From contig JAGQIK010000192.1 in assembly GCA_020431405.1 (NCBI GenBank), positions 1 to 64,000 of the forward strand: DNA of 64,000 nt, written 5' to 3'. How positions within the stretch are numbered: the stretch's first letter is position 1; each line of letters begins with the position of its first letter. A program made the translations under genes and the position numbers. This document shows positions 396 through 48,059 of this stretch, one piece after another. Under the pieces are notes generated by a model. It did not search any database, was not told the DNA's origin, and saw only the letters and a program-made list of their open reading frames with translations. This DNA is from Myxococcales bacterium (GTDB lineage: Bacteria > Myxococcota_A > Polyangia > GCA-2747355).

Positions 396-476
396 GGCGC
401 CGCTACGCTAGCGCAGCCATCGCCGAGCGTCGACACGACTGATGCTGCTACTATAGAGATTCTCCCTGGAGGCCCA

Positions 477-10122: not shown

Positions 10123-10500
10123 ATGGACCGGTCACGCGGCGCGCGCGCCGCAACGATGCTTTCCTGCGCGGCAGCCTTCGTCGCGCTCGCGGCGACCAGC
10201 TGCGGCGGCGAAGCCATCGATGTCGTCGATCCCGCCACCATCCCGCAGAATGTCACCTACACCGAGCACATCGCGCCGATGATGAGCTTCTACTGCGAGG
10301 CCTGCCACTCGCCCGACGCGCAAACCGGCGTCGTCGAAGGCAAGGACTACTCGACCTACGAGAAGACGCGGCGCAACTTCGACGACCTCGAAGAGAGCGT
10401 GTTCGAAAAGGGCGACATGCCGCCCGGTGCGGCGCGCCGCATTCCGCCGCGCGAGCAGGCGATCCTGCGCCGCTGGAAAGCGCTGGGCTTCCCGCAATGA
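10123..10500 (+). CDS. Mono-haem cytochrome c lipoprotein
   Basis: 125 residues, ATG 10123. The lipobox is AATSC with Cys27. A single c-type haem-binding motif CEACH lies at residues 58-62. A distal Met ligand could come from the GDMPPG segment around residue 101, as in many small cytochrome c domains with a GxMPP signature. The stop overlaps the start of the next gene by 4 bp (ATGA). Being lipid-anchored in the periplasm and next to a di-haem outer-membrane protein, a membrane cytochrome-like protein and a 35-haem cytochrome, it probably relays electrons between them. Substrate unknown. Confidence 0.82.
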   Translation: MDRSRGARAATMLSCAAAFVALAATSCGGEAIDVVDPATIPQNVTYTEHIAPMMSFYCEACHSPDAQTGVVEGKDYSTYEKTRRNFDDLEESVFEKGDMPPGAARRIPPREQAILRRWKALGFPQ

Positions 10501-11909
10501 GGCGCGCGCTGCTCTCGCTGACCGCGGCGCTCGTCGCTACTGGTGTGCTGGTCGCGGTCGTCGTGGCCACACAGCATCGCGCCGTGGCGCTACCGCTCTA
10601 CGGCGCGCGCTCCGGCCGCACCTGCGACAACTGCCACACCGATCCGACGCGCTGGAAGAACCCATCGCTGGCCTGGCGCAAGTGCAACCTCTCGTGCATG
10701 GGCTGCCACGTTAACCCGACAGGCGGCGGGCTGCGCACTGCGCCGGGGCGTTTCTACGCGCAGGCGACGCTGCCGATGCTCTTCGCCTCGCATCGCGGCT
10801 ACAAGGACTGGGACAAGCGCCATCTCATCGGCGCGTTTGCCAGCCTCGAAAAGAACCGCCACACGCGCATGCCGCCCTCGGGCTTCGGCTCGCCCATCGG
10901 CGGCTCGCCCACGATGGCCTTCGACCAGGGCCGCTACGGCGGGCTCAACGCCGATCCCTTCGTGCTGGTGGGGCTCGATTTCCGGCTCGCCTTCTGGAGC
11001 GCCGGCTTTCTGGTCTTCCCGATGCAGCTCGACACGCACCTCGCGCTGCACCCGGTGCGATACGTGACGGCCTTCGTCACCGCCGGCGTGCTGGCCAAAT
11101 CGAAGGGCTTCGCCTCGACCTTCGAGCGCCGCACGCCCTACTTCGTCAAAGACACCTTCGTGATGGTGCACCAGCTGCCCTACATGGCCTACGCGCGCGT
11201 GGGGCGCTTTTTGCCGCCCTTCGGCACCATGCTCGACGATCACACCTCGCCGATTCGCCGCGAGTTCGAGCTCGATCAGGGCATCTTGCAAAGCCGCGTC
11301 ACCGGCGTCGAGTTGGGCATCGCACCCAACTATCCGTACGCGCACGTCGCCGTCTTTCGTCCCGGACCGCGTGACCAATACGCCTTCGACGACCCCGATG
11401 GCGACGCCACGCCAGCCTTTCTCGGCCAGCCCGGCGTGGGCTTCGCCGCCAGCGCCGGCTGGCGCGACCTCGGCTGGCAGATCGGCGCCAGCGTGATGCT
11501 GCGTCGCCGCGAGCTCGAAGACGGTGGCGACACCAACTCGCTGAGCGTGCAGTGGGCCTTCAACCCGTGGTTCTTCTCCGACTCGGTGCCGCTGACGCTG
11601 ATGGGCGAGTTTGCGTTCGGCACGCGCCAGCGCCCGCTCAGCGGTCAGACCACGCGTCAGATCGCGTTCTACAGCGAGCTGTTCTACTCGCCGTTCAACG
11701 GCATCAACCTGAGGCTCAAGTACGACGCCTCCGACTACGACACCGAGATCAAGGACGATCACTACCACCGCCTCAGCCTTGGCCTCGATCTCTACGTGCT
11801 GCCCAAGATGTCGATCCATACTCAGCTGCGCATGCGTTTCTCCGGACAGTCGAGCGTCGAGCAGGGGCTCGCCACCGATGTGTTCTGGATGCTGCGTGCC
11901 TGGTACTAG
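10497..11909 (+). CDS. Di-haem outer-membrane protein (cytochrome-porin-like)
   Basis: 470 residues, ATG overlapping the upstream stop. An N-terminal hydrophobic signal (residues 5-25) is followed by two CxxCH motifs: CDNCH (43-47) and CMGCH (67-71). From about residue 110 the chain is rich in alternating strands with aromatic girdles (YGGLNADPFVLVGLDFRLAFW, shortened: GLDFRLAFW; MLRRRELEDG; FYSELFYSPFNGINLRLKY) and ends in WY, typical of an outer-membrane barrel. This suggests haems on the periplasmic side of, or inside, a barrel, analogous in idea to porin-cytochrome conduits. Family relationship to known conduits is not established. Confidence 0.72.
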   Translation: MRRALLSLTAALVATGVLVAVVVATQHRAVALPLYGARSGRTCDNCHTDPTRWKNPSLAWRKCNLSCMGCHVNPTGGGLRTAPGRFYAQATLPMLFASHRGYKDWDKRHLIGAFASLEKNRHTRMPPSGFGSPIGGSPTMAFDQGRYGGLNADPFVLVGLDFRLAFWSAGFLVFPMQLDTHLALHPVRYVTAFVTAGVLAKSKGFASTFERRTPYFVKDTFVMVHQLPYMAYARVGRFLPPFGTMLDDHTSPIRREFELDQGILQSRVTGVELGIAPNYPYAHVAVFRPGPRDQYAFDDPDGDATPAFLGQPGVGFAASAGWRDLGWQIGASVMLRRRELEDGGDTNSLSVQWAFNPWFFSDSVPLTLMGEFAFGTRQRPLSGQTTRQIAFYSELFYSPFNGINLRLKYDASDYDTEIKDDHYHRLSLGLDLYVLPKMSIHTQLRMRFSGQSSVEQGLATDVFWMLRAWY

Positions 11910-11911
11910 CG

Positions 11912-12781
11912 ATGGCCAAAGCTGAAGCCCGCATCTTCCCCGTCGTGATCGTGCTGCTCAGCGGCGCGACGCTGGTCGGCTGCGCCGCGATCTTCATCGC
12001 CGGCCGCGACTACTACTTCGCCTCGTCCGCTTCGCGTCTCGATCACCCGCAGCACGCGCTGTTTGCCGCCACCGGCACCATCGGCATCGGCTGCGGCATC
12101 GCCGCGACCGTGCTGTTTCTGTCGAACCTGTTTTATCTCGTGCGTAAGAAGGCACGCATCGAGCTGCTCGGCACGATGCGTCACTGGCTGCGCTGGCACG
12201 TCATCTCGGGCACGCTAGGCTGTCTGCTGGTCGCGCTGCACGCCGTCTTCGAGGCGCGCACCCTCGTCACGCAGGCCATCGTCTGGTCCCTGGTGGTGGT
12301 GATCGTCACCGGCGTGGTGGGACGGTACCTCGTGCGCTTTATCCCGCGCACGCGCGACGGCCAGCAACAGGTCGTCGCCGAGCTCGAAGACCAAGTGATG
12401 CACTTCATCGAGACCGTGCGGCCCGCCTGCAAGGACGACACGGAGGCGCTGGCAGTGCTCAACCGCATGGCCGACGCGCTCGACAGCAGCCAGGCGCTGC
12501 CGGGCTTGGGCGCCGCGATGAAACGCGCGCGCACGGCGCGCCGCGAGCTGCGCTATCTGGCGCGCACGGCGGGCGCCGAGGGCGCGCTGCCTTCCGGGGC
12601 CAACCTCGGCAAGCTGATGCGCGACGCTGGAAAGCTCTACCGGCAGCTGCTGCTCGCCCGCTTCGCCAGCAACCTGCTCGACAGCTGGCGGATCTTCCAC
12701 CGCGTCCTGGCGCTGCTCTTCATCGTCGCCCTGGGGCTGCACATCGGCGCGGCGCTGTATTACGGCTTTGTAAGCCTATGA
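11912..12781 (+). CDS. Polytopic membrane protein, cytochrome b-like
   Basis: 289 residues. ATG at 11912 is 2 bp after the preceding stop and fits a first membrane helix; the frame is open upstream only as a shadow. Four to five hydrophobic segments: residues 7-28, 47-72, 88-108, 116-135 and a C-terminal one at about 262-285. His residues sit within or near helices (HWLRWHVISGT, VALHAVF, IFHRVLALL, LGLHIGA), a spacing like haem b ligation in cytochrome b561/ferric-reductase-type proteins. A soluble helical loop lies at 135-255. Placed between cytochrome genes and a flavoprotein gene, a quinol or haem b role is likely but not proven. Confidence 0.65.
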   Translation: MAKAEARIFPVVIVLLSGATLVGCAAIFIAGRDYYFASSASRLDHPQHALFAATGTIGIGCGIAATVLFLSNLFYLVRKKARIELLGTMRHWLRWHVISGTLGCLLVALHAVFEARTLVTQAIVWSLVVVIVTGVVGRYLVRFIPRTRDGQQQVVAELEDQVMHFIETVRPACKDDTEALAVLNRMADALDSSQALPGLGAAMKRARTARRELRYLARTAGAEGALPSGANLGKLMRDAGKLYRQLLLARFASNLLDSWRIFHRVLALLFIVALGLHIGAALYYGFVSL

Positions 12782-12836
12782 TATTGCGCTAAAATAAAGT
12801 CCATCTGTTTTGGCCGCCCGATCCCACAGAACCGGT

Positions 12837-14837
12837 GTGAGACGCGCCCCCTTTGCCGCACAGCTGGTTTTTTCGCTGCTGATCCCCGCGGTAGCCGCGG
12901 CCGAGGCGCCACCGGTGGCCCTGTTGGTGCCGAGCGGCCCACTGTCGGCTGACGTGCTGGCGACCGTGGCAAGCCTTCGCGTGCCCACCGCCGTCGTGTC
13001 GCGCAGCTGCCTCAAGCGCCCGCGCTGCATCAAGAAGAAGGCCGTCGACAACGAGGTCGACGTGCTGGCAGTCATCGACGCGAAGTCCAAGAAGGGCGAG
13101 CGCGCCGCCGCCACGATCCAGGTCTACTCGGCGCGCACCGGCGAACCCACGCGAAGCGTTTCGCTGCGGCCGCGGGCGCAGCGCGCGTTGATGACGGCGC
13201 TGCTCGCACGCGTCGCCGAGCTCTTCAACCTGCAGCCCAAGAACGCGCCCACCGCGGGCAGCGCCGCGGGCAGCGGCAGCGCCGCCGCCGCGGCCGCCAG
13301 CGGTGGCAGCGGCAGCGGCAGCGGTAGCGCGAGCGGCGTCGCCGGCACGCAGAAAGCCGAGCCCGAGCCGGTCACCAAGATGCCGAGCCTGGTCGTGACG
13401 CTCGATGTCGACCTGCCGAGCAAGGCGCAAGCCGCGGCCAAGGGCAAAAAGGCTGTAGATGACGCCGAGGCCAAACGCGCCGCCTCCGTGCAGCGACTCG
13501 ACGGCCTGCAGAACCTGGTCTTCATGCTGATCGTCTTCGGCGTGCTGACCAGCGGCTTCTCGCTGAGCCTGCTTCACTCGCGTCGCCAGCGCCGCAAGGC
13601 GGAGGCGCTGATCAAAAAGACCAAAGAGGATGGCGCCGACCAGCCGCCGAGCCTGCACCCCATCATCGACCCGACCAAGTGCATTGGCTGCGGCAGCTGC
13701 GTGATGGCCTGTCCGGACCGCAAGGTGCTCAGCGTCTTCGACAACATGGCGCGCCTGGCCACGCCGGCCAACTGCGTCGGCATCGGCGAGTGCAAAGCGA
13801 TCTGCCCCGCCGACGCGATCACGCTCGTCTTCGGCACCAGCAAGCGCCCTGTCGACCTGCCGCGTCTCGACACGGGCAACCAGAGCACGGTGCCGGGCCT
13901 CTACATCGCCGGCGAGCTCGGCGGCATGGGCCTCATCGCCAACGCCTTCGCCCAGGCCATCGAGGTCATGGACGCGATCAAGACCGACCTCGACTCCTCT
14001 TCCGGCGTTCACGACCCCGACGCCGCCGACGTGCTGGTCGTCGGCGCCGGCCCGGCCGGTCTCGGCGCCTCGCTGCGCGCCAAGGAGCTCGGCCTGAGCT
14101 ACCGCTGCGTCGACCAGGCCGAGTGGGGCGGCGCCATCCGCGCCTACCCGCGCGGCAAGCTGGTCATGACGCGCCCGATCAAGGTGCCGCTCTACGGACC
14201 GGTCAAGATGCGCGAGACGTCGAAGGAAGCGCTGGTGGAGACCTTCACGCGAATCGTCGATCAGACGGGCGTGAAGATCGAGTCGGGCGTGCGCGTCGAG
14301 AAGATCGATCGCGGGCCCGCTGGCGTCTTCGTCGTTCGCACCAGCCGCGGCGCGATCAAGGCGCGTCGCGTGCTGCTCGCCATCGGTCGCCGCGGCACGC
14401 CGCGCAAGCTCGGTGTCGCCGGCGAGAACGACCAGCGCGTCGCCTACGTGATGACCGAGCCCGATCGCTGGGCCAACCAGCAGCTGGTGGTTGTCGGCGG
14501 CGGCGACGTGGCCTGCGAGACGGCGCTCGCGCTCGCCGAGCAGCCGGGAACCACCGTCTCGATGCTGTATCGCGGGTCCTCGCTGAGCCGTCCCAAGCCG
14601 GGCAACCGCGAGCGCATCGCCGAAGCCGTGCAGCAGGGCAAGCTCGAGCTGGTGCTCGGCGCCGATGTCAAGGCCGTCACGCCCAGCGGCATCCAGCTCG
14701 CGACGCCGCAGCGCGGTGCGTTCGAGATCCCGGCGGACAAGATCTTCGCCTGCCTCGGCGGCAACCCGCCGACCAAGTTCCTCTCGGCCATCGGCATCGA
14801 GGTCGTAACCTTCACCGGACAGCCCGCGGCCGCCTGA
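12837..14837 (+). CDS. Membrane-anchored ferredoxin / FAD-NAD(P) oxidoreductase fusion
   Basis: 666 residues; GTG 12837 chosen because it starts a signal-like hydrophobic stretch (a TTG at 12810 is the alternative). Order: export-type N-terminus; Ala/Gly/Ser-rich linker (about 140-170); a membrane helix near 225-245; a ferredoxin-like domain with CIGCGSCVMAC (Cys 282, 285, 288, 292) and a second CxGxGxCxxxCP set; then a thioredoxin-reductase-like two-nucleotide flavoprotein (FAD motif VVGAGPAGLGAS; NAD(P) motif VVVGGGDVACETAL; GTP.P-like LGGNPPTKFL end). It likely transfers electrons between NAD(P)H and Fe-S/haem partners encoded beside it. No redox CxxC of true thioredoxin reductases is seen. 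Confidence 0.85.
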   Translation: MRRAPFAAQLVFSLLIPAVAAAEAPPVALLVPSGPLSADVLATVASLRVPTAVVSRSCLKRPRCIKKKAVDNEVDVLAVIDAKSKKGERAAATIQVYSARTGEPTRSVSLRPRAQRALMTALLARVAELFNLQPKNAPTAGSAAGSGSAAAAAASGGSGSGSGSASGVAGTQKAEPEPVTKMPSLVVTLDVDLPSKAQAAAKGKKAVDDAEAKRAASVQRLDGLQNLVFMLIVFGVLTSGFSLSLLHSRRQRRKAEALIKKTKEDGADQPPSLHPIIDPTKCIGCGSCVMACPDRKVLSVFDNMARLATPANCVGIGECKAICPADAITLVFGTSKRPVDLPRLDTGNQSTVPGLYIAGELGGMGLIANAFAQAIEVMDAIKTDLDSSSGVHDPDAADVLVVGAGPAGLGASLRAKELGLSYRCVDQAEWGGAIRAYPRGKLVMTRPIKVPLYGPVKMRETSKEALVETFTRIVDQTGVKIESGVRVEKIDRGPAGVFVVRTSRGAIKARRVLLAIGRRGTPRKLGVAGENDQRVAYVMTEPDRWANQQLVVVGGGDVACETALALAEQPGTTVSMLYRGSSLSRPKPGNRERIAEAVQQGKLELVLGADVKAVTPSGIQLATPQRGAFEIPADKIFACLGGNPPTKFLSAIGIEVVTFTGQPAAA

Positions 14838-14849
14838 TCGGTCCTAACT

Positions 14850-16634
14850 GTGAGACGCCGCCTCGTCAGCGCGCTGGTGTTGATCCTCGCGGCTGTCGTG
14901 CTGCTCGGCGGGTTCGACGCCGAGGCGCGCCGTCGCCGTCGTCGCCGTCGCCGCCGGCATCAGCGCCGCACGCCCGTGACGGCCGCCAGCGCGTCGCACG
15001 GGCGCGGTCCGCGCGTGGTGCAGGTCACCGACAAGTCTGTCTTCATCTCGGCCGGTGCCCGTGATGGGCTCGCGGTCGACGATCGCGTCACCGTCAAGCT
15101 CGGCGAAGAGCGCGTCGAGCTGCGCGTGGCGTCGGTCGCGCCGAACAGCGCGCGACTCGACCGCGCCGAAGACAAGGTCGTCCCGCGCCTCAACAGCCGC
15201 GTCGAGCTGCCCGAGCAGGCGCGCGCGCGCGCCAGCAAGCGCGCCGGCGCCAGCGCGGCAGGGATGTCTTCCAAGCCGCGCACGCTGCCCGCGCCGGAGA
15301 GCGAGCGCGCCCTGGCGGCGTTGTGGCAGGGCGTCTCGCTCGAGCCGCGCCGTCGCTTGCTGCGCTTTGGCGGCACGCCGGCGGTTCGTCGCGCCGGCGA
15401 GTCGCGCGCGCGACGCATGCGCGGCACGCTGCGCATCGAGTACCTCGGCAACATCGACCTCTCCGGCACCAGCGACGGAGCGATCTCGAGCTTTCATCAA
15501 CTCGGGCTCTACTCCGATCTCGAGGTGCCCAAGGTCTTCGTCAACTGGCTCGACTACGCCCACCGCGTGCGCCTGCGTCTCAACTTCGCCAGCGATCTCG
15601 ATCAGCGTCGCTTTCAGGACAGCCGCCCCAACGTCTTGGTCTATCGCCTGCGGCTCGGCATCAACACGGCGCGCTTTCGCGCGCAGCTCGGCCGCGTGGC
15701 GTCGGCGCCGCTGGTCGGTGCCGCGCTGGTCGACGGCGGCAGCGCGCGCGTCCAGATCACGCGCGGGCTGAGCATTGGCGCCTACGGCGGCCTCTCGCCG
15801 CGCGCCGCCGACCTGCGCCCCAGCACGCGCTCGGCGCGCTTCGGCGGCTACGCGTCGCTACGACTTTCGCCGGGGCAAGGCCGCTACGCGCTGTCGGCCG
15901 ACGCCGGCTTCATCGGTACGACCTTCGGCGGCGACATCGATCGGCAGGCCATCAGCGCGCGCGCCAGCTTCGACTCGCGCGCGGTCTCGGTCTTCGGCAG
16001 CGCCGTCGTCGACCTGCTCGGCAGCGACCACGAAAGCGGCGTCTCGGGCCCGGTGCTGACCTGGGCCAGCGTGCACGCCGCCGTGCGGCCGACGCGCTCG
16101 CTGAGCATCGGCGCGCGGGTCGATCGCTATCGCTTCCCGCTCACGCGCGAGCTGATCGCCGACTTCGGGCGTGACTTCTCGGTGCAGGAGGCGGTGCTGT
16201 CCGGGCGCGCCAGTGTCGACCTCGACCTGACGCCGTCGATCCGCATCGGCGGCGGCGCCGGCTACCAGCGCCAATCCGTGGCGAGCAACACCGGCTGGGG
16301 CGACGCCTCGCTCGACATCCTCTCGCTGCTCGGTGACGCCGATCGTCTGCGGCTCTCGGCGCTGGCCAGCATCGGCAGCTCGCTGACGAGCTATGGCGGC
16401 CGCTTGAGCTACTCGGCGCCAGTCACCGACTGGCTCGATCTCGCCGCGGCCTACGGCGCATACGCCGACACCGATCCTGGCGCCGACGCGCTGACGCGCT
16501 TTCGCCAGAGCATCTCGGCGTCGGTCGACCTGCGCGTCGGTCGCCATATCAGCTCGGCGATCGACGCCACGGCGCTGCTAAGCCCCGACGAGCGCGTGAT
16601 GCTGATCTTTGCCAGCGTGGCTTATCATCTCTAG
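14850..16634 (+). CDS. Putative outer-membrane beta-barrel with basic N-terminus
   Basis: 594 residues, GTG 14850, 12 bp after the flavoprotein. The signal peptide (MRRRLVSALVLILAAVVLLGG) is shortened here: hydrophobic core residues 5-20. It is followed at once by ten consecutive Arg (residues about 27-36), which is unusual. Residues 50-115 form a small beta domain (VVQVTDKSVFISAGARDGL). From about residue 190 to the end the sequence is a barrel-like series of amphipathic strands (LRIEYLGNIDLSG, VRLRLNFASDLDQ, SIRIGGGAGYQRQ) ending SVAYHL. It sits between the flavoprotein and the 35-haem cytochrome, so it may be the porin partner of that cytochrome. Confidence 0.68.
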   Translation: MRRRLVSALVLILAAVVLLGGFDAEARRRRRRRRRRHQRRTPVTAASASHGRGPRVVQVTDKSVFISAGARDGLAVDDRVTVKLGEERVELRVASVAPNSARLDRAEDKVVPRLNSRVELPEQARARASKRAGASAAGMSSKPRTLPAPESERALAALWQGVSLEPRRRLLRFGGTPAVRRAGESRARRMRGTLRIEYLGNIDLSGTSDGAISSFHQLGLYSDLEVPKVFVNWLDYAHRVRLRLNFASDLDQRRFQDSRPNVLVYRLRLGINTARFRAQLGRVASAPLVGAALVDGGSARVQITRGLSIGAYGGLSPRAADLRPSTRSARFGGYASLRLSPGQGRYALSADAGFIGTTFGGDIDRQAISARASFDSRAVSVFGSAVVDLLGSDHESGVSGPVLTWASVHAAVRPTRSLSIGARVDRYRFPLTRELIADFGRDFSVQEAVLSGRASVDLDLTPSIRIGGGAGYQRQSVASNTGWGDASLDILSLLGDADRLRLSALASIGSSLTSYGGRLSYSAPVTDWLDLAAAYGAYADTDPGADALTRFRQSISASVDLRVGRHISSAIDATALLSPDERVMLIFASVAYHL

Positions 16635-16658: not shown

Positions 16659-19652
16659 ATGCTCCGATCGCTCGCCACGCTCGCCGTGCTCGCCGCCGCC
16701 TGCTTCGTCCCGCGCGCGGCGTTGGCCCAGGTGTTTTCGCCGGGCAAGCTCTCGCGTGCGCACGCGGCATTCGAGTCGCGCTGTCCGAGCTGCCACGATC
16801 GCGCCAACAAGGCCAAAGTCAGCGCGTCGCTGTGCTACAGCTGCCATCAGCCGCTTCGCCGCCGCGTCTCGGCGCGCCGCGGCTATCACGGCCGCCGCAA
16901 CGTCGCCAAGTGCGCGTCGTGTCACCGCGAGCACCGCGGCCGTGGCTTCGCCTTGGTCAAGTGGCCGAGCGGCTCGGCGGCGCGCTTCAACCACGCACAG
17001 GCCGGCTACGCGCTGCGCGGCAAGCACGCGACGACGGCCTGTCGTAAGTGCCACAGCACGGCTCAACAGCGCGAGGCTGACGTGCGCAAGATGGGCGCTG
17101 CGCGGCGCAAGCGCACCTACTTCGGCCTCAAGCGCGGCTGCGTCAACTGCCACACCGACCACCACAACGGCGCGCTCGGCACGCGCTGTCAAACCTGCCA
17201 CGTGCAGACCAGCTTCAAGACCGTCTCGCGCTTTCCTGGCCACAACAAGACGCACTTCCCGCTGCGCGGAAAGCACGCCAAGATCGCCTGCAAGAGCTGC
17301 CACAAGAGCCCGTCGGGCCGCTGGCGCTTTCAAAACGTTCCCCACGCCACCTGCAACAGCTGCCACACCACCGCGCACCCCCAGACCATGGGCCAGAAGC
17401 GCGGCACCGTCGGCAGGCGCTGCAGCAGCTGTCACAAGGAGACGAGCTTTCGCGCGATCATCTACGCGCGCTCGACGCACTCCAAGAAGATGCCGCTCGT
17501 CGGCGGCCACCGCCGCGCGCGCTGCCGCGGCTGCCACGGCGCCAAAGCGCGCCGCGTCGTCAAGACCACCGTGTGCGCCAACTGCCACCGCGATCCGCAC
17601 AACCGGCGCTTCGGCTCGGTCTGCAACAAGTGCCACAACGTCTTCAGCTGGCGCGGCGGTGTCCGCGGCAAGGCGCGCAGGACGGTCAAGGCCAAGCTCA
17701 ACGACATTCAGAAGGCCGCGCTGCTCGGCATCACCAAGGCGCAGGTCGCCGCCATCGCCTTCCACACCAAGACGCGCTACCCACTTACCGGCCAGCACAT
17801 CGTCACCAAGTGCGAAAAGTGCCACAAGCGGCGCGGGCGGCGGCGCAAGAAGATCCGGCGCTTCTCGCGCTGCAGCCACTGCCACAAGGACGAACACCGC
17901 GGGCAGTTCCGGCGCCACGCCTCGCTGCGCAAGGCCAAGGCGACGCGCTGCGAGAGCTGCCACGACACGCGCGGCTTCGGGCTGACCAGCTTCACGGCCG
18001 AGCGCCACGAAAAGTCACGGCTCGCGCTGCGCGGCGCGCACGCCGCCGTGCCCTGCAACCGCTGCCACTCGACTCAGCGACCGCGCGTGCGCCGCTTCAC
18101 CTTCAGCCGCAAGCTCGATTGCAGCACCTGCCACAAGGACGTGCACAAGGGCCGCTATCGGCTCACCGCGCGCAGCGCGCGCCCGCTGGCCTGCACCACG
18201 TGTCACCAGGTCGACGGCTTCAAGCCGCCGCGCTTCGATCACGACAAGACCAAGTTCCCGCTGCTGGCCAAGCACAAGCGCACCGCCTGCGCATCGTGTC
18301 ACAAGCCGCGCGGCGCGCGCGGCATCGTCGCCTTCCGCGGCCTCTCGGCGCGCTGCGGCAGCTGTCACCGCAGCGCACACGCCGGCCAGTTCAGGCTGCG
18401 CGGCAGGGTGCGCGACTGCGGCGACTGCCACGAAAACGGCGGGCCGGTCTTCAAGATCGCCAAGTTTGATCACGCCAAGAAGACGCGCTACGTGCTCGAC
18501 GGGGCGCACGCCAAGACGCAGTGCAAGCAGTGTCACGAGCCGGTCAAGCTCGCCGACGCGCGGATGGTGGCGCGCTATCGACCGACGCTGATCTCGTGCA
18601 AGAGCTGCCACCAGTCGGGCCATCGCCACCTGGCCAAGCGCGTCAACAAGCGCCTCGCCGCCAACGTGCGCGGCGTGCTGCTCGCGGCGGCGCGCGGCAA
18701 GCTGCCCGGCGCGCCGCGCGGCATGGCCAAGTGCGAGCGCTGTCATGTCAGCGCCACCGCGTGGCGTGCGATCAAAGCGCCCAAGCGCTTCGACCACGCG
18801 CGCGTCGGGTGGGCGCTCGAGGGGCGCCACGCCCAGGCGCAGTGCAAGGACTGCCACCGCCCGGGCCGCAAGGCCTCGCGCGCCTGCGTGACGTGCCACA
18901 GCGATCGGCACGGCGGCAAGCTCGGCGATCGCTGCGCCGAGTGTCATCGTCCCAAGAGCTGGAAGCGCTCGACGATCCTGGCGCGGCACCGCCGCACGCG
19001 CCTGCCGCTGACGGGCTTTCACGCGCTCGCCGACTGCGCCTCGTGTCACCCGCGCTCGCGCGCGAGCAGCTACGTCGGCGCGCCCGCGGCCTGCTACGCC
19101 TGCCACGCCAGCGCCTACAACGATCCCAAGATCCATCCCGACCACAAGAAGGCCGGCTTCGACACGCGCTGCGAGCTGTGTCACCGCGCTACCGGCTGGT
19201 CGCCGGCGCGCTTCACCAGCACCACCACCGCGCTGACGGTGCACCGCAGCTTCGCGCTGACCGGCAAACATCGCGCGGCACGCTGCGTCAGCTGCCACGC
19301 GCGCGGCCGCCCGTCGAAGCGTTGCGAGAGCTGTCACGCCAAGGACGCCAAGCGCGCGCGCGTCAGCCACGCTGGCTGGGGCCAACGCGACTGCGGGCGC
19401 TGTCACAGCAACACGGCGTTTCGGCCGGCGCGGCTCGCGGCGCACCAGAAGCGCTTCCCGCTGACCGGCAAGCACCGCGGCCTCGCCTGCGGCGACTGCC
19501 ACCAAGGCCGCGGCGCCGCCGCGTTCAAGCGGCCGACGTGCGCCGGCAGCTGCCACAGCATGGCGACCACCGCGCAACGTCACCGCCGCGTCTCGAGCTA
19601 CCTCTGGTCGAGCAGCGCCTGCCTACGCTGTCACCCGCAGGGCCGCCGCTGA
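16659..19652 (+). CDS. Giant multihaem c-type cytochrome (35 CxxCH motifs)
   Basis: 997 residues, ATG 16659, with a Sec signal peptide (cleavage near ALAQ, residue 24). I count 35 CxxCH motifs distributed from residue 42 to the C-terminus, plus one CxxxCH variant (CAGSCH) near residue 963. Motifs recur within a loose module of the type F-x-H...(F/L)PL-x-G-(K/R)HA...C-x-x-CH, indicating internal duplication. Further isolated His residues could be distal ligands. The protein is very Arg/Lys-rich. It should be a periplasmic or exported electron conduit or store. The upstream barrel, di-haem protein and flavoprotein suggest a shared pathway, 24 bp from the barrel gene. Requires cytochrome c maturation genes, which are not in the window. 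Confidence 0.95.
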   Translation: MLRSLATLAVLAAACFVPRAALAQVFSPGKLSRAHAAFESRCPSCHDRANKAKVSASLCYSCHQPLRRRVSARRGYHGRRNVAKCASCHREHRGRGFALVKWPSGSAARFNHAQAGYALRGKHATTACRKCHSTAQQREADVRKMGAARRKRTYFGLKRGCVNCHTDHHNGALGTRCQTCHVQTSFKTVSRFPGHNKTHFPLRGKHAKIACKSCHKSPSGRWRFQNVPHATCNSCHTTAHPQTMGQKRGTVGRRCSSCHKETSFRAIIYARSTHSKKMPLVGGHRRARCRGCHGAKARRVVKTTVCANCHRDPHNRRFGSVCNKCHNVFSWRGGVRGKARRTVKAKLNDIQKAALLGITKAQVAAIAFHTKTRYPLTGQHIVTKCEKCHKRRGRRRKKIRRFSRCSHCHKDEHRGQFRRHASLRKAKATRCESCHDTRGFGLTSFTAERHEKSRLALRGAHAAVPCNRCHSTQRPRVRRFTFSRKLDCSTCHKDVHKGRYRLTARSARPLACTTCHQVDGFKPPRFDHDKTKFPLLAKHKRTACASCHKPRGARGIVAFRGLSARCGSCHRSAHAGQFRLRGRVRDCGDCHENGGPVFKIAKFDHAKKTRYVLDGAHAKTQCKQCHEPVKLADARMVARYRPTLISCKSCHQSGHRHLAKRVNKRLAANVRGVLLAAARGKLPGAPRGMAKCERCHVSATAWRAIKAPKRFDHARVGWALEGRHAQAQCKDCHRPGRKASRACVTCHSDRHGGKLGDRCAECHRPKSWKRSTILARHRRTRLPLTGFHALADCASCHPRSRASSYVGAPAACYACHASAYNDPKIHPDHKKAGFDTRCELCHRATGWSPARFTSTTTALTVHRSFALTGKHRAARCVSCHARGRPSKRCESCHAKDAKRARVSHAGWGQRDCGRCHSNTAFRPARLAAHQKRFPLTGKHRGLACGDCHQGRGAAAFKRPTCAGSCHSMATTAQRHRRVSSYLWSSSACLRCHPQGRR

Positions 19653-19835
19653 GCTTGCTTCGCGGCCGGCGAGCGCCTGCATTCTCGGGCGGCAAGCCAA
19701 CTGGCCACACGGGCTGCTCGTGGCCTCGGCGGACCCCAGCAAGGCCTCGGCGAGCCAATACACCAAGTATTATTGGTGAGTTAGGTGCCGCGCGCGGGCG
19801 GCTGCGCTGGCACCTTCATTGCAGCCCAGGGGTTC

Positions 19836-22800
19836 GTGAGATTTCACGGCCTCGTCGCGTTCGCGCTGCTGCTGCTGCTGCTGCTGCCCTCGGGCAGCCG
19901 GCTGGCGAGCGCCCGGCAGCCATCGGCGCTGGTAGGACGACGACTCGCCGCGGCCAAGCGCGACTTTCGCCGCGTCGTCAGCGGCAAGCTCGACCTCGGC
20001 GCCTGGAAGAAGCGCCACGGTGTGAGCAACGGCGTGATGACGCGGCTTCGGCGAGCGCACCCCGACGACTTCCCGCATCTCGACCGCGCCCGCACCTTCT
20101 CGAAGGCCGAGCTCGATCGCATGCAGGTCGACTGGACGCGCGCGCGCGAGGGCGCGATCACGCTCACCCGCTTCAAGGCGATCTACGGGCTGGGCAACGA
20201 GACCTACAAGCGGCTGATGGCGCAGCACGGCGACCGCTTCGAGCCCTTCGAGCTCAAGCTCGGCGGAAGCCGGCTCGCGACCAAGCGCAGGGCCAAGAAG
20301 AACGACCCCGCCCGCATCGAAAAACTCGCCAAAGCCTGGGCCGACGAGGTGCTCGGCGGAAAGCTCACCGTCCGCGCCTTCTACGCCAAGCACGGCACGA
20401 GCAAGCGGGAGATCACGCGGCTGCGCAAGCAGCCCGAGCACAAAGATCGTTTCCCTAGCGCCACGGCGCTGCACGCGTCGCTTTCCAAGCAGAGCCTCAG
20501 CGCGACGCAGATCAAGCGGCTCAGCGATGTCTGGAAGCAGGGCGTCTTTTCTGGTGACAAGACCATCGCGCAGTTTCGCCGCGAGCACGGTCTGACGCAG
20601 CGCGTGTACCGCGAGCTGCGCGCCGACAAGAAGGCCTTCCCCGATCCTATCAAGACGCCCAACCGGGTCGGCGCCCCGCGGCGCACGTTCGATATCGCCG
20701 AGCTCGACGTGATGACCGCCGACTGGAAGCGGGTCGCCTCGCGCCACCTTTCGCGCAGCGCATTCATGCGCAAGCACCGCATCGACGCCAAGCAGCTCAA
20801 GCGGCTGCGCACCGCCCACCCCGAGCGCTTCTTCTATCTCGGCGCCAGCACGCGCACCAAGCGCTTCGCGGACGCCAAGCTCGAGGCGATGAAGGCCGAC
20901 TGGCTGACCGTGATCGCAGGGCGCATGCGCGAGGCAGACTTTCGGCAGCGCCACGGCTTGTCGACCACGCTGTTTCGGCGCTTTCGCGAAGACAAGCGCA
21001 ACCGCGATGACTTCCCCAAGCTCAAGGGCAGCGGCAGCCGCAGCGTGGTCGTAGCCGACGCGGCCGTCATCGACGACTGGGCGCGCGTGCGCGATGGGAA
21101 GCTGGCGGCGAGCGCCTTTCGCCGCCGTCACCCCGACGTCAAGGCCGTCGAGCTGCTCGCGCTGCAGCGACGCGCGCTGCGCGAACGCAAGTCAACGCTC
21201 GCCGAGCAGCTCGGCTTCAACGACCCGCCGCAGATCGTCGCCGAGGCCAAGCCGAAGGCGAAGGCCAAGCCCAAGCGCGAGCCCAAGCCGCGCGAGGCGA
21301 GCCGCTACGCCCGCAGCGACCTCTACGCGGCCTCGACGCTCGACGCGGCCAAGGTCTTCTTCGGCGAGCACCATCGCGGCGAGAAGAGCTACAAGCAGCT
21401 GCAAGGCGCGCTCGAGAAGCTCGGCATCAGCACGAGTGGTCCGGGCATCGCCTACCTGCGAAAGCTCGATCCGATCGCTTTCGCCCCCAAGCGCGAGTTC
21501 ATCGATCGCAACCACGACGCGATCATCAAAGACCTGATCCGCATCGCCAAGGCGCACCAGCACGTGATCCGCAAATGGTCCGACTTCGAAGAGGTCGTCG
21601 CCAAGGACGCGGTGTTTGTCGCGCGCTACGGCGACCTCGAGGTCGGGCTGATGAGCAAGACCGTGCGCCGCGATCGCGACGGCAATAGACAGCTGCACGA
21701 CCTGATGGCGTCCTTCACCCAGGTGGGCAGCGGGCGAGGCCCCGCGCGCGGCAGCAAGCGGGGCGCGGCTCGCGAAAAGCAGGTCGGCTCATCGCGTTCA
21801 GCGTCGTGGCCACGCCGCGACAGCGCGCGCACGCTCGCTCGCGCGCTGCGCGGGCTCAAGCCGACGCCCGCAAATCTGGCCAAGGTCGTCGTCAAGCTGA
21901 AGGCCAGCGGGGACCCCAACTTCCGTACGCGTCGCCAGTGGATGCTGCTGCGCGCCGAGTACGACGGCGTGCTGCCCGAGCTGGCCAAGTGGAACTTCGA
22001 TCGGCACCGCCCGTACTCGCTGCGCTACGTCGCACGCTGGGCCGTCGCCGCTCACGAGGCCGGTCCTGGCGCCGACTACGACGCCATCGTCAAGATCTTC
22101 AAACGCAGCGCAGAGTACAAGGCGGACGGCCGGCTGCCACCCAAGGCGACCGGCACGGTGATCATGGCCAAGAGCTACCCCGAGCTCGTCAGCTCGTGGT
22201 CGGTGCGCCGAACGATCCAGCGCACGCGGCTGGTCCTCGAGCTTTTGCGCACGGCGCCCGCGGGCACGACGCTCTACGCGCTGCGCGACAAGCTCGCCGC
22301 TGTCGGGTTCAAGAGCTACAACCAGGCGCACCTCGCGCTGACGCGGTTGACGCGCGCCAAGGTCAAGGCGATGGGTCTTCGCGGCGAGCTCTACGCCACG
22401 CTGCGGGCCAACGGCTTCAAGGGGCTCGGGCAGCGCGCAAACCCGCGCTTCGATCCCAACGCGGAGCCGGGGCGCGTCGACATCCAGCTGGCGCGCGAGA
22501 TCCTCGCCGTGCCGACCATGCCGCCGCTGCTGCAGCACGCCGTCAAGCGGCTCGATGGCGACCGCCCGTTCACGTCGCACAACGTGATGTTCGTCTACCA
22601 CCGCTACAGCGACATCGTCTCGCTGGTCGACGCGATGGCGGCGGCGGGGATGAGCCGCAAGGATGCGACCTTTGTCTCGACGCCTTATCCGTTCAAGGAT
22701 TCGATCAGCTACATCTACCGCAAGCGCGGCCTGACCGTGCTCGAGCCGAAGCTGAGCCAGCAGAGCTACGCGCGCACGGTCGAGCAGGGCATTCGCAAGA

Positions 22801-23750
22801 TGCTCGCCAAGCACGCCGAAGAGGAAAGGAAGTGGGGCAAGGGCAAACCGATCCTGATCCTCGACGACGGCGGCATGGCCGCGACGATTATCGGCGAGAA
22901 GTTCAAGGAGCACATCGGCAAGTTCCGCATCGTCGAGGTCACCGCCGACGGACACCGACAGGCGCGGGCCTTCGAGAAGAAGCACGGGCGGCTGGCGTTT
23001 CCGTACTTCTCCATCGCCTACATGCGCTTCAAGCGACGTGTGACGTCGAGCTTCTACGGCAACCGCGTCGTCGACCGGATGCTGAATCTGGTCCCGCAGA
23101 CGCGCGAGCCGCTGAAGAACAAGCGCGCGACGGTGCTCGGCGCCGGTCCAATGGGGTTGTTCGCGGGGCTGCGGCTCGCCGCGAAGGGACACGAGGTGAC
23201 CTTCGTCGACCCGGACAAGCGCGCGCAGACGCTGATCCGTCGACTGGCGCGCAAGCGTCCCGATCTCGGGCTCAAGATCGACACGCTCGAGCGCGCGCTG
23301 CCCGGCCGCGCGATCATCCTCGGCATGAGCGGCTACCCCGTGCTCGAAGCGCGGCACCTCGCGCTCATCGACGACGGCGCCTTCGTCGCTCAAGGCTCGT
23401 CCAAGCGCAAAGAGTTCCATATGGCCGCCATCGAAAAGGCGGCCACGAGCAAGAAGCTGATGCGGCGCACCGACGGGCTGGCGCAGAAGTCGTACACGTA
23501 CGCCTTCGGGCGCGGCGCACGCGCCAAGCGCATCCACTTCCTCGGCGACGGCTGGACGCTCAACCACGACGGATCGCTGCACGGCACGCCGATGAAGGAC
23601 GTGCAGCTCGAGCTGGCGATCCTCTTCGAGAGCGCCGTGCAGGCCGCCAGAACGCCGCTCGGTCAGACCGGCATCTTCCGCACCGTCGACAAGACGACGC
23701 AGAAAGAATACGTCGAGCTCTGGCAGCGACTGGTTGGTCGCAAACGCTAG
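19836..23750 (+). CDS. Secreted protein: seven helical repeats plus SAH-hydrolase-like NAD domain
   Basis: 1304 residues from the GTG at 19836, which follows an AGGGG and gives a signal peptide (Leu-rich core residues 8-17); a GTG at 19785 is the alternative. Residues about 30-450 contain seven modules of roughly 60 residues sharing W/D...F..(K/R)HG(L/V/T)......L(R)...(FP), helix-turn-helix-like in pattern. Residues 470-900 are mostly helical and unassigned. From about 900 to the end it resembles the adenosylhomocysteinase core: a substrate-like Rossmann part (ILILDDGGMAATI near 1003), FYGNRVVDRMLN, the NAD-binding VLGAGPMGLFAGL near 1098, and FVAQGSS. The catalytic role is unproven. This fusion is not one I recognise. 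Confidence 0.8.
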   Translation: MRFHGLVAFALLLLLLLPSGSRLASARQPSALVGRRLAAAKRDFRRVVSGKLDLGAWKKRHGVSNGVMTRLRRAHPDDFPHLDRARTFSKAELDRMQVDWTRAREGAITLTRFKAIYGLGNETYKRLMAQHGDRFEPFELKLGGSRLATKRRAKKNDPARIEKLAKAWADEVLGGKLTVRAFYAKHGTSKREITRLRKQPEHKDRFPSATALHASLSKQSLSATQIKRLSDVWKQGVFSGDKTIAQFRREHGLTQRVYRELRADKKAFPDPIKTPNRVGAPRRTFDIAELDVMTADWKRVASRHLSRSAFMRKHRIDAKQLKRLRTAHPERFFYLGASTRTKRFADAKLEAMKADWLTVIAGRMREADFRQRHGLSTTLFRRFREDKRNRDDFPKLKGSGSRSVVVADAAVIDDWARVRDGKLAASAFRRRHPDVKAVELLALQRRALRERKSTLAEQLGFNDPPQIVAEAKPKAKAKPKREPKPREASRYARSDLYAASTLDAAKVFFGEHHRGEKSYKQLQGALEKLGISTSGPGIAYLRKLDPIAFAPKREFIDRNHDAIIKDLIRIAKAHQHVIRKWSDFEEVVAKDAVFVARYGDLEVGLMSKTVRRDRDGNRQLHDLMASFTQVGSGRGPARGSKRGAAREKQVGSSRSASWPRRDSARTLARALRGLKPTPANLAKVVVKLKASGDPNFRTRRQWMLLRAEYDGVLPELAKWNFDRHRPYSLRYVARWAVAAHEAGPGADYDAIVKIFKRSAEYKADGRLPPKATGTVIMAKSYPELVSSWSVRRTIQRTRLVLELLRTAPAGTTLYALRDKLAAVGFKSYNQAHLALTRLTRAKVKAMGLRGELYATLRANGFKGLGQRANPRFDPNAEPGRVDIQLAREILAVPTMPPLLQHAVKRLDGDRPFTSHNVMFVYHRYSDIVSLVDAMAAAGMSRKDATFVSTPYPFKDSISYIYRKRGLTVLEPKLSQQSYARTVEQGIRKMLAKHAEEERKWGKGKPILILDDGGMAATIIGEKFKEHIGKFRIVEVTADGHRQARAFEKKHGRLAFPYFSIAYMRFKRRVTSSFYGNRVVDRMLNLVPQTREPLKNKRATVLGAGPMGLFAGLRLAAKGHEVTFVDPDKRAQTLIRRLARKRPDLGLKIDTLERALPGRAIILGMSGYPVLEARHLALIDDGAFVAQGSSKRKEFHMAAIEKAATSKKLMRRTDGLAQKSYTYAFGRGARAKRIHFLGDGWTLNHDGSLHGTPMKDVQLELAILFESAVQAARTPLGQTGIFRTVDKTTQKEYVELWQRLVGRKR

Positions 23751-32573: not shown

Positions 32574-33953
32574 ATGACCGATGGCCCAGGCCGGCGCGCT
32601 CGCGCGCTATGGCCCGTGCTGGTCGTGATGGGAGGCTGCGCGAGCACGCGCACGACCGCCGCCTCCACATCACCGAGCAGCCTACAACACCGATTTCCGG
32701 CGCGCGCTGCATCTGGGCGCGCGACCCTACCTGACCCAGCGCGCGTCAGGCGGGTGACGCTGGCGCAGCTGCTTGCCTACGGCGACGTTCACGCCCCCGC
32801 CGTGCGCGTCGCCCAAACGCGGGTGGCGCTCGGTGACGCGGAAGTGCGGGCCGCGTCGCCGCTGCTGCCCGCCGACCCGCAGCTGACGCTCAAGCTCGGA
32901 CCCCGGCTGACGGCGAGCGGCAGCGCCATCGACGCGCAGGTGATCTTGCTTCAGCGCCTCCAGATCGCAGGCGAGCGCGGCCTGCGTATCGACGCAGCCA
33001 AGCGGACCCGGCGGCGCTTACGGGCTGGCCTGTCGCAGGTGCGCTGGACGGTCCACCAGCAGCTCCACGCCGGCTATCGTCGGGCGCAGGTTGCCCGCGG
33101 GAGGCTGCAAGCCGCGAAGCGGTTGCTGGCGTTTACCGAGCGGCTGCTGCACATCAGCCGTAGGCGCGAACAGGCGGGCGCTATCTCCGGGCTCCAGGTG
33201 CAGGTCGTCCGCGGTGACCTCGCCCAGGCGCAGCAGGCCAAGATCGCCGCGGACAACGCCTATCTCGCAGCCCGACTGCGGCTCGCCCAGCTCTCGGGCT
33301 GGCCTGTCCGCCATCTACTGGAACCGGACGGACGGGTCGCGGCCCCAACCGCTGCCGTGCCTAGCGCGCGTTCGCTGCTTCACAAGGCCATGCGCAGTCA
33401 CCCTGCACTGCGTCTGACCCATGCGAGCATCGTCGAGTCCGAGGCTCGATTGCGACTGGCCAAGCGCGAGGTCGCTCCCAAGCCGGCCCTGGGCGTGCAG
33501 CTCAACCGCGAGGGCCAGGCGGCTGCGCGAGCGAGCCACATCGTGATGGGTGTGCTGAGCCTGCCGATCCCGATGTGGCAGCGCAACCAAGGTGCCGTAG
33601 CGCGCGCCCGCGCGCGCGTGGCTGTGGCGCGCGCCGAGCACCGCGCCTTGCGCCGACAGCTTCACGCCAGGATCGCCCGCGCCGTTGCCGCCGTGCGCGC
33701 CGGTGCCAAGCGCATCCGCATCTATGGCACGAAGGTGCTGCCGACGTTCGGGACGAGCCTACGGATGCTCCAGCGCGCGTTCGAGGCGGGGAAGATCGAC
33801 GTGCTTCAGGTGATGGTGGCGCGCGGGCGCTTTCTCGAAATCCAGCGTCAGGCCCTCAACGCTTACGACGACTACTACCGCGCGGTGGCCACCCTCGAAG
33901 CGGTCGTCGGCAGCGACGACTGGACGCACGCCGGCCCGAGAGGTGCGAGATGA
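32574..33953 (+). CDS. CzcC/CusC-type outer-membrane efflux channel (TolC family)
   Basis: 459 residues, ATG 32574. Lipoprotein-like start with MGGC lipobox near residue 22. The rest follows the TolC/OEP pattern: two long helical halves, each with Ala/Arg/Gln-rich heptads (RAQVARGRLQAAKRLLAF; ARAEHRALRRQLHARIA) and short barrel strands (LTLKLGPRL, PALGVQLNRE). Trimeric outer-membrane exit duct for an RND pump. Its stop overlaps the start of the adaptor gene (ATGA), and an RND pump gene follows, forming a complete CBA tripartite system. Confidence 0.88.
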   Translation: MTDGPGRRARALWPVLVVMGGCASTRTTAASTSPSSLQHRFPARAASGRATLPDPARVRRVTLAQLLAYGDVHAPAVRVAQTRVALGDAEVRAASPLLPADPQLTLKLGPRLTASGSAIDAQVILLQRLQIAGERGLRIDAAKRTRRRLRAGLSQVRWTVHQQLHAGYRRAQVARGRLQAAKRLLAFTERLLHISRRREQAGAISGLQVQVVRGDLAQAQQAKIAADNAYLAARLRLAQLSGWPVRHLLEPDGRVAAPTAAVPSARSLLHKAMRSHPALRLTHASIVESEARLRLAKREVAPKPALGVQLNREGQAAARASHIVMGVLSLPIPMWQRNQGAVARARARVAVARAEHRALRRQLHARIARAVAAVRAGAKRIRIYGTKVLPTFGTSLRMLQRAFEAGKIDVLQVMVARGRFLEIQRQALNAYDDYYRAVATLEAVVGSDDWTHAGPRGAR

Positions 33954-35173
33954 GCCGAACGCGGAGGCCCTCCCTGATGCTCGTCGTGACCCTCTGTCTC
34001 GTCGCGAGCTGCTCGAAGAAAGACCCAACCGGCAAGCACGCCCAGGACAAGGGCGCCGCTGAGAGTCGAGGCGCCCACAAACCTGACGACGATCTGGTTG
34101 ACCTGAGCCCACAAGCCCTGACACAGGCGAAGATACGCACTGCAACGGTGACGCGACGCGCGCTGTCAGGCGTCATCCAGACCACCGGCGAGGTGGCTTT
34201 CGACCAGGACCGCGTGGCGCACGTCAGCCCGCGCGTGCCCGGCCGGGTTTTTCGCGTGCGCGCCAAGCTCGGCGACCACATAAAGACCGGCCAGACCTTG
34301 GCGATCCTCGACTCGATCGAGCTGGGCCGGGCAAAGGCAGACTACCTGCGAGCACGGGCTCAGCTTCAGCTCGCACGGCAGAACCTCAAGCGCGAGGAGC
34401 AGCTTCTCAAAGAGAAGATAACGTCGGGGCGCGACGTGATCACGACCCGCGCAGCCCACCAGAAGGCCCTCGCCGACTACCGCGCGGCACGCCAGCGCCT
34501 GCGACTGCTGGGCCTCTATTCGCGCCAGATCGATCGGATGCGCTACGACCGCACCCGATCAGCGCTGCTGTCGGTGCGGTCGGCCATCGCCGGGCGGGTC
34601 ATCAAAAAGCACATCACGCTCGGCGAGCTGGTCACGCCCAAGAGCAACCTGTTTACCGTCGCCGACCTCTCTCGCGTCTGGATCTGGATCGATGTCTACG
34701 AACGCGACCTCGCCTCGGTCCACGTCAACGATGGTGTGGAGGTCCGCGTCAAAACGTACCCCAAGCGGGTCTTCTCGGGACACGTCAGCTACATCGCAGA
34801 CCAGATCGACCGCCACACACGAGCGGTGCGCGCCAGGGTCGATGTGAAAAACGGCGATGGTGCGCTCAAGCCGGGCATGTTTGCCAAGGTGCGCCTGATC
34901 GACCCGCACGGCGCAGGTGGCCACGGCAAACGGCGTCAGGTTCTGGCTGTTCCGGCGGCAGCCGTTCAGCGAGCTGGCAAAGGCAGAGTCGTTTTCGTCG
35001 AGGTCGCCAAGGGCCGCTATCGGCGCACGCGCGTGGTCGTGGGCATCGAGGCCGATGGGTTCGTCGAGATCCGCTCGGGCCTCAAGCGCGGACAGCGCGT
35101 GGTGACGAAGGGCGCCTTCATCCTCAAGTCCGAGGCATCGAAGCGATCGATGGGTCAAGGGCACGGTCATTGA
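33950..35173 (+). CDS. CzcB/CusB-type periplasmic adaptor (membrane fusion protein)
   Basis: 407 residues; ATG 33950 overlaps the channel gene's stop, and a signal with lipobox VASC (about residue 21) follows at once, so the longer upstream frame is ignored. Barrel-sandwich/lipoyl halves are visible (VSPRVPGRVFRVRAKLGDHI and IAGRVIKKHITLGELV), with an intervening alpha-hairpin (YLRARAQLQLARQNLKREEQ) and a beta-barrel domain (VWIWIDVYERDLASV). A His/Gly-rich tail (GQGHGH) may bind metal. It links the RND pump to the outer channel in the periplasm. Confidence 0.9.
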   Translation: MSRTRRPSLMLVVTLCLVASCSKKDPTGKHAQDKGAAESRGAHKPDDDLVDLSPQALTQAKIRTATVTRRALSGVIQTTGEVAFDQDRVAHVSPRVPGRVFRVRAKLGDHIKTGQTLAILDSIELGRAKADYLRARAQLQLARQNLKREEQLLKEKITSGRDVITTRAAHQKALADYRAARQRLRLLGLYSRQIDRMRYDRTRSALLSVRSAIAGRVIKKHITLGELVTPKSNLFTVADLSRVWIWIDVYERDLASVHVNDGVEVRVKTYPKRVFSGHVSYIADQIDRHTRAVRARVDVKNGDGALKPGMFAKVRLIDPHGAGGHGKRRQVLAVPAAAVQRAGKGRVVFVEVAKGRYRRTRVVVGIEADGFVEIRSGLKRGQRVVTKGAFILKSEASKRSMGQGHGH

Positions 35174-35186
35174 TGGAGTGGCGCAA

Positions 35187-46481: not shown

Positions 46482-46502
46482 GGCCTCCTCCTAGCCAACA
46501 GC

Positions 46503-47363: not shown

Positions 47364-47382
47364 CTCAAGAAGGGGACGATCG

Positions 47383-48042: not shown

Positions 48043-48059
48043 TGGACTGATCGGCGACG

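What the first reader, a model, noticed from the sequence alone, without database searches (positions are those of the whole stretch)
16659..19652. A 35-haem, extremely basic c-type cytochrome
Thirty-five CxxCH motifs in one 997-residue chain is far above common cytochromes, and the Arg/Lys richness is unusual for an electron conduit. The repeated module with PL-x-G-(K/R)H before each CxxCH suggests growth by duplication. It could form a nanowire-like filament or a large periplasmic electron store.
Basis: partly seen in the sequence, partly recalled or inferred. Interest (0 to 1): 0.78.

Follow-up and report, generated by a model that had tools for sequence, protein, structure and literature searches.

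The report
Fused 36-haem trans-envelope electron wire
This gene makes one long protein built from twelve three-haem units, apparently two electron-carrying proteins that other bacteria keep separate joined into one, and it sits with the membrane parts needed to wire the inside of the cell to the outside.

Summary
In detail: one intact 997-aa secreted ORF with 35 CxxCH. It is one haem site short, because CAGSCH at residue 961 aligns with a CxxCH in a relative, giving 36 = 12 three-haem modules. The protein is the most basic of its family (+169 net), but the family is basic, so charge is no argument against an electron conduit. A 49%-identical relative in the same order keeps the same 35+1 sites, which excludes a frameshift.

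The N-terminal 23 haems are homologous to the periplasmic cytochrome of the hypothetical iron-oxidiser complex PCC3. The C-terminal 13 are homologous to a second cytochrome encoded by a separate, signal-peptide-bearing gene in Bacteroidota, Calditrichota and some relatives. In the split loci tabulated, the first protein has 3n-1 haems and all ten homologous second proteins 3n+1, as if one triplet were shared across the junction. The fusion lies inside that triplet.

The locus adds a PCC3-type inner-membrane protein, a membrane-anchored Fe-S/FAD/NAD(P) reductase, a predicted 22-strand barrel and a dihaem-barrel protein. Best reading: a single-chain, PCC3-like trans-envelope electron conduit. 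Filament formation is not supported; electron storage as a side role is possible. Direction and substrate are unknown.

The parts
16659..19652 (+). 36-haem c-type cytochrome (35 CxxCH + 1 CX3CH), 997 aa, secreted
   Evidence: relative L103 49% identical with the same 35+1 motifs
16659..16730 (+). Sec-type signal peptide (MLRSLATLAVLAAACFVPRAALAQ)
   Evidence: sequence; family members begin the mature chain at the same place (..AQ-xSPGxL)
16731..18626 (+). N-terminal part, residues 25-656, 23 haems: homologous to the PCC3-type periplasmic cytochrome
   Evidence: aligns end to end with separate 20-23-haem proteins of L009, L010, L023, L130, L131
18612..18731 (+). linker, residues 652-691, between haems 23 and 24: fusion junction
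   Evidence: in split relatives the first protein ends and the second begins here
18732..19649 (+). C-terminal part, residues 692-997, 13 haems: homologous to a second, separately secreted cytochrome of split loci
   Evidence: best non-fused matches are L059, L022, L010, L133 and L009 second-gene products, nearly end to end
19539..19556 (+). CX3CH haem site (CAGSCH, residues 961-966), the 36th site
14850..16634 (+). outer-membrane beta-barrel (594 aa), predicted 22 strands (191-593) with a small N-terminal beta domain; candidate sheath for the cytochrome
   Evidence: AlphaFold2 mean pLDDT 73, pTM 0.61; 39% relative directly beside the cytochrome in G003; matches only generic large barrels in the PDB
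12810..14837 (+). secreted N-terminal domain, one TM helix, then 4Fe-4S ferredoxin domain and FAD/NAD(P) pyridine-nucleotide reductase domain
   Evidence: Pfam Fer4, Pyr_redox_2/3; relative present in 49 of 64 related loci with at least 5 kb upstream; no full-length second copy in the genome
11912..12781 (+). inner-membrane protein (289 aa, about 5 TM), di-haem-b type: two WX3HX13H motifs (residues 92 and 259)
   Evidence: motifs as published for PCC3/PCC4 inner-membrane proteins; only copy in the genome
10497..11909 (+). outer-membrane beta-barrel-like protein with N-terminal di-haem domain (CDNCH, CMGCH), 470 aa
   Evidence: five paralogues in the same genome, 57-64%

Best explanation
The protein is the electron wire of a PCC3-like trans-envelope conduit, made as one chain by fusion of a periplasmic cytochrome (23 haems) with a second, more outward cytochrome (13 haems). 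Shown here: the fusion, the three-haem module plan, and linkage to an inner-membrane di-haem-b candidate, a membrane-anchored Fe-S/FAD/NAD(P) reductase and a large barrel. Inferred: electrons pass between cytoplasmic reductant (NAD(P)H or an Fe-S carrier, via the reductase) or quinol, the two b haems of the inner-membrane protein, then along the N-terminal haem array across the periplasm, and through the C-terminal haems in or at the barrel to the surface, perhaps via the dihaem-barrel protein. Direction and substrate are unknown; outward flow is slightly favoured because the inner-membrane part resembles NOX/ferric-reductase topology and sits with a cytoplasmic NAD(P)/FAD/Fe-S enzyme.
For: N-part homologous to Gallionellaceae, Leptothrix and Sphaerotilus PCC3 periplasmic cytochromes (papers PMC5566968, PMC10734462). 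Inner-membrane protein carries both WX3HX13H motifs described for PCC3/PCC4 inner-membrane proteins. The cassette cytochrome + inner-membrane protein + reductase + barrel recurs in G003, G064, G097, G142 and G131. Split versus fused: first protein = window 17-656, second = window about 670-997, second gene with its own signal peptide and often overlapping the first by the 4 bases ATGA. Haem phase: first proteins 3n-1, all ten homologous second proteins 3n+1 (10, 10, 13, 13, 16, 19, 22, 34, 40, 61), while in loci with 3n first proteins the second is random (18/16/17). Profile match to the dodecahaem nanowire GSU1996 (3ov0) over about three of its four triheme domains. 43 non-motif His for 36 haems allows bis-His ligation throughout.
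Against: No structure: the AlphaFold2 model of the cytochrome is unusable (pLDDT 43). The C-terminal part is as basic as the N-terminal part here (K+R 20%), unlike extracellular cytochromes of relatives (mostly under 10%), so it may be periplasmic. The barrel is not detectably homologous to PCC3 porins of Proteobacteria. No PCC3 has been tested biochemically in the papers read, and in S. lithotrophicus both PCC3 clusters were lower on Fe(II) (PMC8788666). The C-part resembles the second-gene proteins only modestly more than it resembles other repeats (about 149-183 versus about 146 bits), although the end-to-end register and C-terminus agree.
Confidence: 0.68

Rival explanations
1. Wholly periplasmic electron capacitor: a long triheme-repeat cytochrome, like Geobacter GSU1996/GSU2210, that stores electrons; the barrel genes serve something else.
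For: Three-haem module plan and sequence match to GSU1996; both halves strongly basic as in periplasmic members; no extracellular multihaem gene beside it in the window.
Against: Conserved neighbourhood with inner-membrane protein and barrel in several genomes; GSU1996-type proteins are not defined by a porin cassette. Storage does not explain the complementary 3n-1 / 3n+1 split.
Confidence: 0.17
2. Filament-forming nanowire cytochrome (OmcS/OmcE/OmcZ type) that polymerises outside the cell.
For: Very low residues per haem (27) and repeats; weak local profile match to OmcS.
Against: Homologues are of the PCC3/GSU1996 type; the OmcS match is E 0.0066 over a short stretch; gene context is a membrane conduit.
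Confidence: 0.05
3. Two periplasmic cytochromes fused, handing electrons to the dihaem-barrel protein, which alone crosses the outer membrane (Cyc2-like exit).
For: The dihaem-barrel gene ends 2 bases before the inner-membrane gene starts; the C-part keeps high K+R.
Against: Close relatives of the dihaem-barrel protein are found in only two genomes of the class sample and its paralogues sit in other contexts, while the 594-aa barrel is the conserved neighbour of the cytochrome.
Confidence: 0.1

Closest known systems
PCC3, putative porin-cytochrome complex 3 of iron oxidisers (He et al. 2017, PMC5566968; Hoover et al. 2023, PMC10734462)
   Same: Homologous periplasmic cytochrome with a multiple-of-three haem number; inner-membrane protein with both WX3HX13H motifs; outer-membrane barrel; low residues per haem.
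   Different: The 36-haem chain unites the periplasmic and a second cytochrome; no separate extracellular cytochrome; barrel not recognisably homologous; different gene order; extra dihaem-barrel protein. A Fe-S/FAD/NAD(P) reductase lies beside most of these loci, yet 'FAD' and '4Fe-4S' do not occur in the 2017 main text.
GSU1996 dodecahaem nanowire cytochrome (PDB 3OV0)
   Same: Poly-triheme, c7-type modules in one chain; profile match over about three domains.
   Different: 12 versus 36 haems; GSU1996 is described as a periplasmic capacitor (PMC10138318); ligation (one His-Met haem per domain there) not testable here.
MtrCAB / MtoAB
   Same: Idea of a cytochrome wire insulated in a barrel, with periplasmic and outer parts.
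   Different: Decahaem subunits, separate chains; the DmsE decahaem model matches only at 63 bits against a cut-off of 192.

Membership tests
PCC3 | periplasmic multihaem cytochrome with a large haem number, homologous to known members | tested here: met
   N-part aligns with Gallionellaceae and Leptothrix members
PCC3 | inner-membrane protein of about 300 aa, 5 TM, two WX3HX13H motifs and SGXXG | tested here: met
   289 aa, motifs at 92 and 259; TGVVG in place of SGXXG; TM count judged by eye
PCC3 | adjacent outer-membrane beta-barrel porin | tested here: met
   594-aa barrel, 22 strands predicted
PCC3 | porin homologous to PCC3 porins (up to 42 strands) | tested here: inconclusive
   tblastn finds only L103 and, weakly, L059 among the loci searched
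PCC3 | separate extracellular multihaem cytochrome | tested here: not met
   the only ORFs with two or more CxxCH in the window are the 36-haem and dihaem ones; its counterpart appears fused
GSU1996-type triheme-repeat nanowires | chain of three-haem modules | tested here: met
   12 modules; profile match to 3ov0
GSU1996-type triheme-repeat nanowires | one His-Met haem per domain, linear haem packing in the crystal | not testable with these tools
   no usable structure
MtrA/DmsE decahaem family | score above the TIGR03508 cut-off | tested here: not met
   63.1 versus 192.2 bits
OmcS-type filament cytochromes | full-length homology to OmcS | tested here: not met
   only a short match at E 0.0066
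OmcS-type filament cytochromes | polymerisation into filaments | not testable with these tools
   needs microscopy

The most novel reading that the evidence does not exclude
A single covalent chain carries electrons from the inner membrane, across the periplasm and through the outer-membrane barrel, and the split systems of other phyla are its two-piece form, in which the two cytochromes dock end to end by completing one three-haem module between them.
Probability: 0.35. Interest if true: 0.75.

Novelty: new variant of a known kind. Interest (0 to 1): 0.55.

Why it matters
PCC3 is a proposed but untested electron-transfer complex. The fused relatives give a natural version in which the path of the electron is fixed by one chain. 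The complementary haem phase (3n-1 plus 3n+1) predicts exactly where the periplasmic and outer cytochromes of the split systems meet. Both can be tested on fragments. The locus also extends the system well beyond iron oxidisers (24 of 85 genera sampled in this class hold a match to the cytochrome) and points to a cytoplasmic NAD(P)/FAD/Fe-S enzyme as a neglected component.

Tried and rejected
AlphaFold2 of the cytochrome on a 12-row alignment: pLDDT 43, pTM 0.21, not used. A 23-row alignment including the separate second cytochromes was mis-registered by the repeats (they slid into the N-terminal half), so pairwise and per-half comparisons were used instead. HMMs built for the first and second cytochromes do not separate the halves cleanly because all modules are paralogous. 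Foldseek of the barrel gives only generic large barrels (PapC/FimD ushers, AlgE, porins), none convincing. Single versus repeated origin of the fusion: tree unresolved, 1-3 changes. A frameshift or assembly artefact was rejected.

Full report
What is there. The ORF 16659-19652 (+) is intact: 997 aa, ATG start, signal peptide, 35 CxxCH, coding codon-position GC. Shuffled versions give at most 4 motifs. Counting CX3CH adds CAGSCH at residue 961. The relatives have CTGACH (L103), CLNGACH (L124) and, most tellingly, a normal CTMCH in L125, which has 36 CxxCH. The site is therefore very probably a haem site and the number is 36. There are 43 His outside the motifs, enough for a second axial ligand on each haem.

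Module plan. The chain divides into twelve units of three haems. In most units the first haem follows a stretch with H...(F/Y)xLxGxH, and the third often follows an H-x-G-like stretch. Across 73 complete periplasmic-type relatives, 63 have a haem number divisible by three (18 to 36, and 39 in L012 counting CX4CH sites) and the other 10 are all one short of a multiple (relatedness makes a p-value unsafe). Outer cytochromes of the same loci show no such rule as a set (28/26/20).

Family. The cytochrome's relatives lie in Gallionella, Sideroxydans, Leptothrix, Sphaerotilus, Thiobacillus, Nitrospira, Bacteroidota, Calditrichota, Desulfuromonadales and Myxococcota, and in 38 of 144 genomes of the window's own class. 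Those of iron oxidisers correspond to the periplasmic cytochrome of PCC3, a porin-cytochrome complex proposed from genomes by He et al. 2017 (PMC5566968) and extended by Hoover et al. 2023 (periplasmic subunit 21, 24 or 27 haems; PMC10734462). The papers read report no biochemical test of PCC3; in Sideroxydans lithotrophicus both clusters were lower on Fe(II) (PMC8788666). The host is probably a member of Myxococcota (tree; genome 11.2 Mb), but this was not established.

Fusion. In Bacteroidota, Calditrichota, a Myxococcales MAG and several relatives from the same class, two genes cover the one window gene. The first product (20-23 haems) matches window residues 17-656; the second (10-16 haems in the shorter ones) has its own signal peptide and matches about 670-997, or 688-900 in the shortest. 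The two genes often overlap by ATGA (L013, L059, L130, L133), an arrangement from which fusion is easy. The window, G003, G064, G097 and G142 have the fused form; the Desulfuromonadales locus L012 looks fused too. Whether fusion happened once is unresolved. In the loci tabulated with a 3n-1 first protein, every second cytochrome that matches the window's C-part has 3n+1 haems (10, 10, 13, 13, 16, 19, 22, 34, 40, 61), although their sizes differ sixfold; the one other cytochrome counted there, an 8-haem protein in L132, departs. Where the first protein is 3n, the partner's phase is random (18/16/17). The simplest reading is that one triplet is shared between the two proteins, two haems at the end of the first and one at the start of the second. 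The window's fusion linker (residues 652-691) lies exactly there, between haems 23 and 24. This is an inference from counts; related loci are not independent.

Neighbours. Upstream on the same strand lie a dihaem-barrel protein (10497-11909), the inner-membrane protein (11912-12781) with both WX3HX13H motifs, a secreted/TM/4Fe-4S/FAD-NAD(P) reductase (12810-14837) and a 594-aa barrel (14850-16634), modelled as 22 strands plus a small N-terminal domain at pLDDT 73. The inner-membrane protein occurs once in the genome, and the reductase has only partial, distant relatives elsewhere in it. The inner-membrane gene is within 2 kb upstream of the cytochrome in 51 of 64 related loci with at least 5 kb of upstream sequence, and a reductase relative is present in 49 of them. 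The main text of He et al. contains neither 'FAD' nor '4Fe-4S', so this partner seems to have gone unremarked there. The barrel is the conserved neighbour in fused relatives but is not recognisably related to PCC3 porins by tblastn.

Charge. Net +169 (17.4 per 100 aa) is the family's extreme (median 4.5). The family's periplasmic members have a median net charge of +29, falling to about -20 when two propionates per haem are counted, so basic residues partly offset haem propionates. The window protein remains at about +97 after that correction. Its excess is unexplained, although the G003 relative (+86) is also high.

Mechanism. Shown: homology, fusion, module plan, conserved cassette. Inferred: electrons pass between the cytoplasm or quinone pool and the exterior through reductase and b haems, then the 23-haem part across the periplasm, then the 13-haem part in or at the barrel. 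If haems are packed as in GSU1996 (12 haems in a linear array with 3-5 A gaps, PMC10138318), 23 haems would be long enough for much of the periplasm. Direction, substrate and the place of the dihaem-barrel protein are open. The cytochrome model was unusable.

Classification. It is not filed as a strict PCC3: the separate extracellular cytochrome is absent and the barrel's kinship is unproven. It works most likely as a PCC3-like conduit and is a new variant of that kind.

Noticed in passing
L017:11699-23678: A Gammaproteobacterial PCC3-like locus holds an open frame of about 3,976 aa with 131 CxxCH, still open at the end of the fetched stretch: more haem motifs than the 85 reported as the largest by He et al. 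2017. Other giants: L054 92, L060 81 (open), L052 76.
   Followed up: no
window 10497-11909; G000 C461, C109, C623, C15, C299: The dihaem-barrel protein has five paralogues (57-64% identity) in the same genome, two of them beside decahaem ORFs, and a close relative in only one other genome (G003) of 144 sampled.
   Followed up: partly
L104:7106-11047 and L105:6024-8324 (own genome C1, C125): Further large multihaem ORFs in the same genome: 1314-aa frame with 51 CxxCH and 767-aa frame with 27 CxxCH, made of related repeats.
   Followed up: no
L147:6008-15498; L148:4688-8730 (own genome C233, C383): Two more clusters of multihaem cytochrome ORFs, suggesting a strongly electroactive organism.
   Followed up: no
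C-terminal haem site 35 in L103, L124, L013 and window: The second-last haem site varies as CxxCH, CX3CH and CX4CH between relatives, a natural series for testing haem attachment.
   Followed up: partly
12810-14837: The ferredoxin part has a complete first Cys motif (CIGCGSCVMACP) but the second reads CVGIGECKAICP, lacking one of the usual cysteines.
   Followed up: no
19785-23750: 1321-aa ORF with a basic repeat-rich N-terminal region and a C-terminal adenosylhomocysteinase/NAD-binding-like region; function unclear.
   Followed up: no
44595-52617: Neighbouring ORFs with CHAT (628 aa) and NACHT/AAA-like (752 aa) domains and an unmatched 771-aa ORF.
   Followed up: no
32574-38345: Outer-membrane efflux protein and AcrB-type RND transporter genes.
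   Followed up: no
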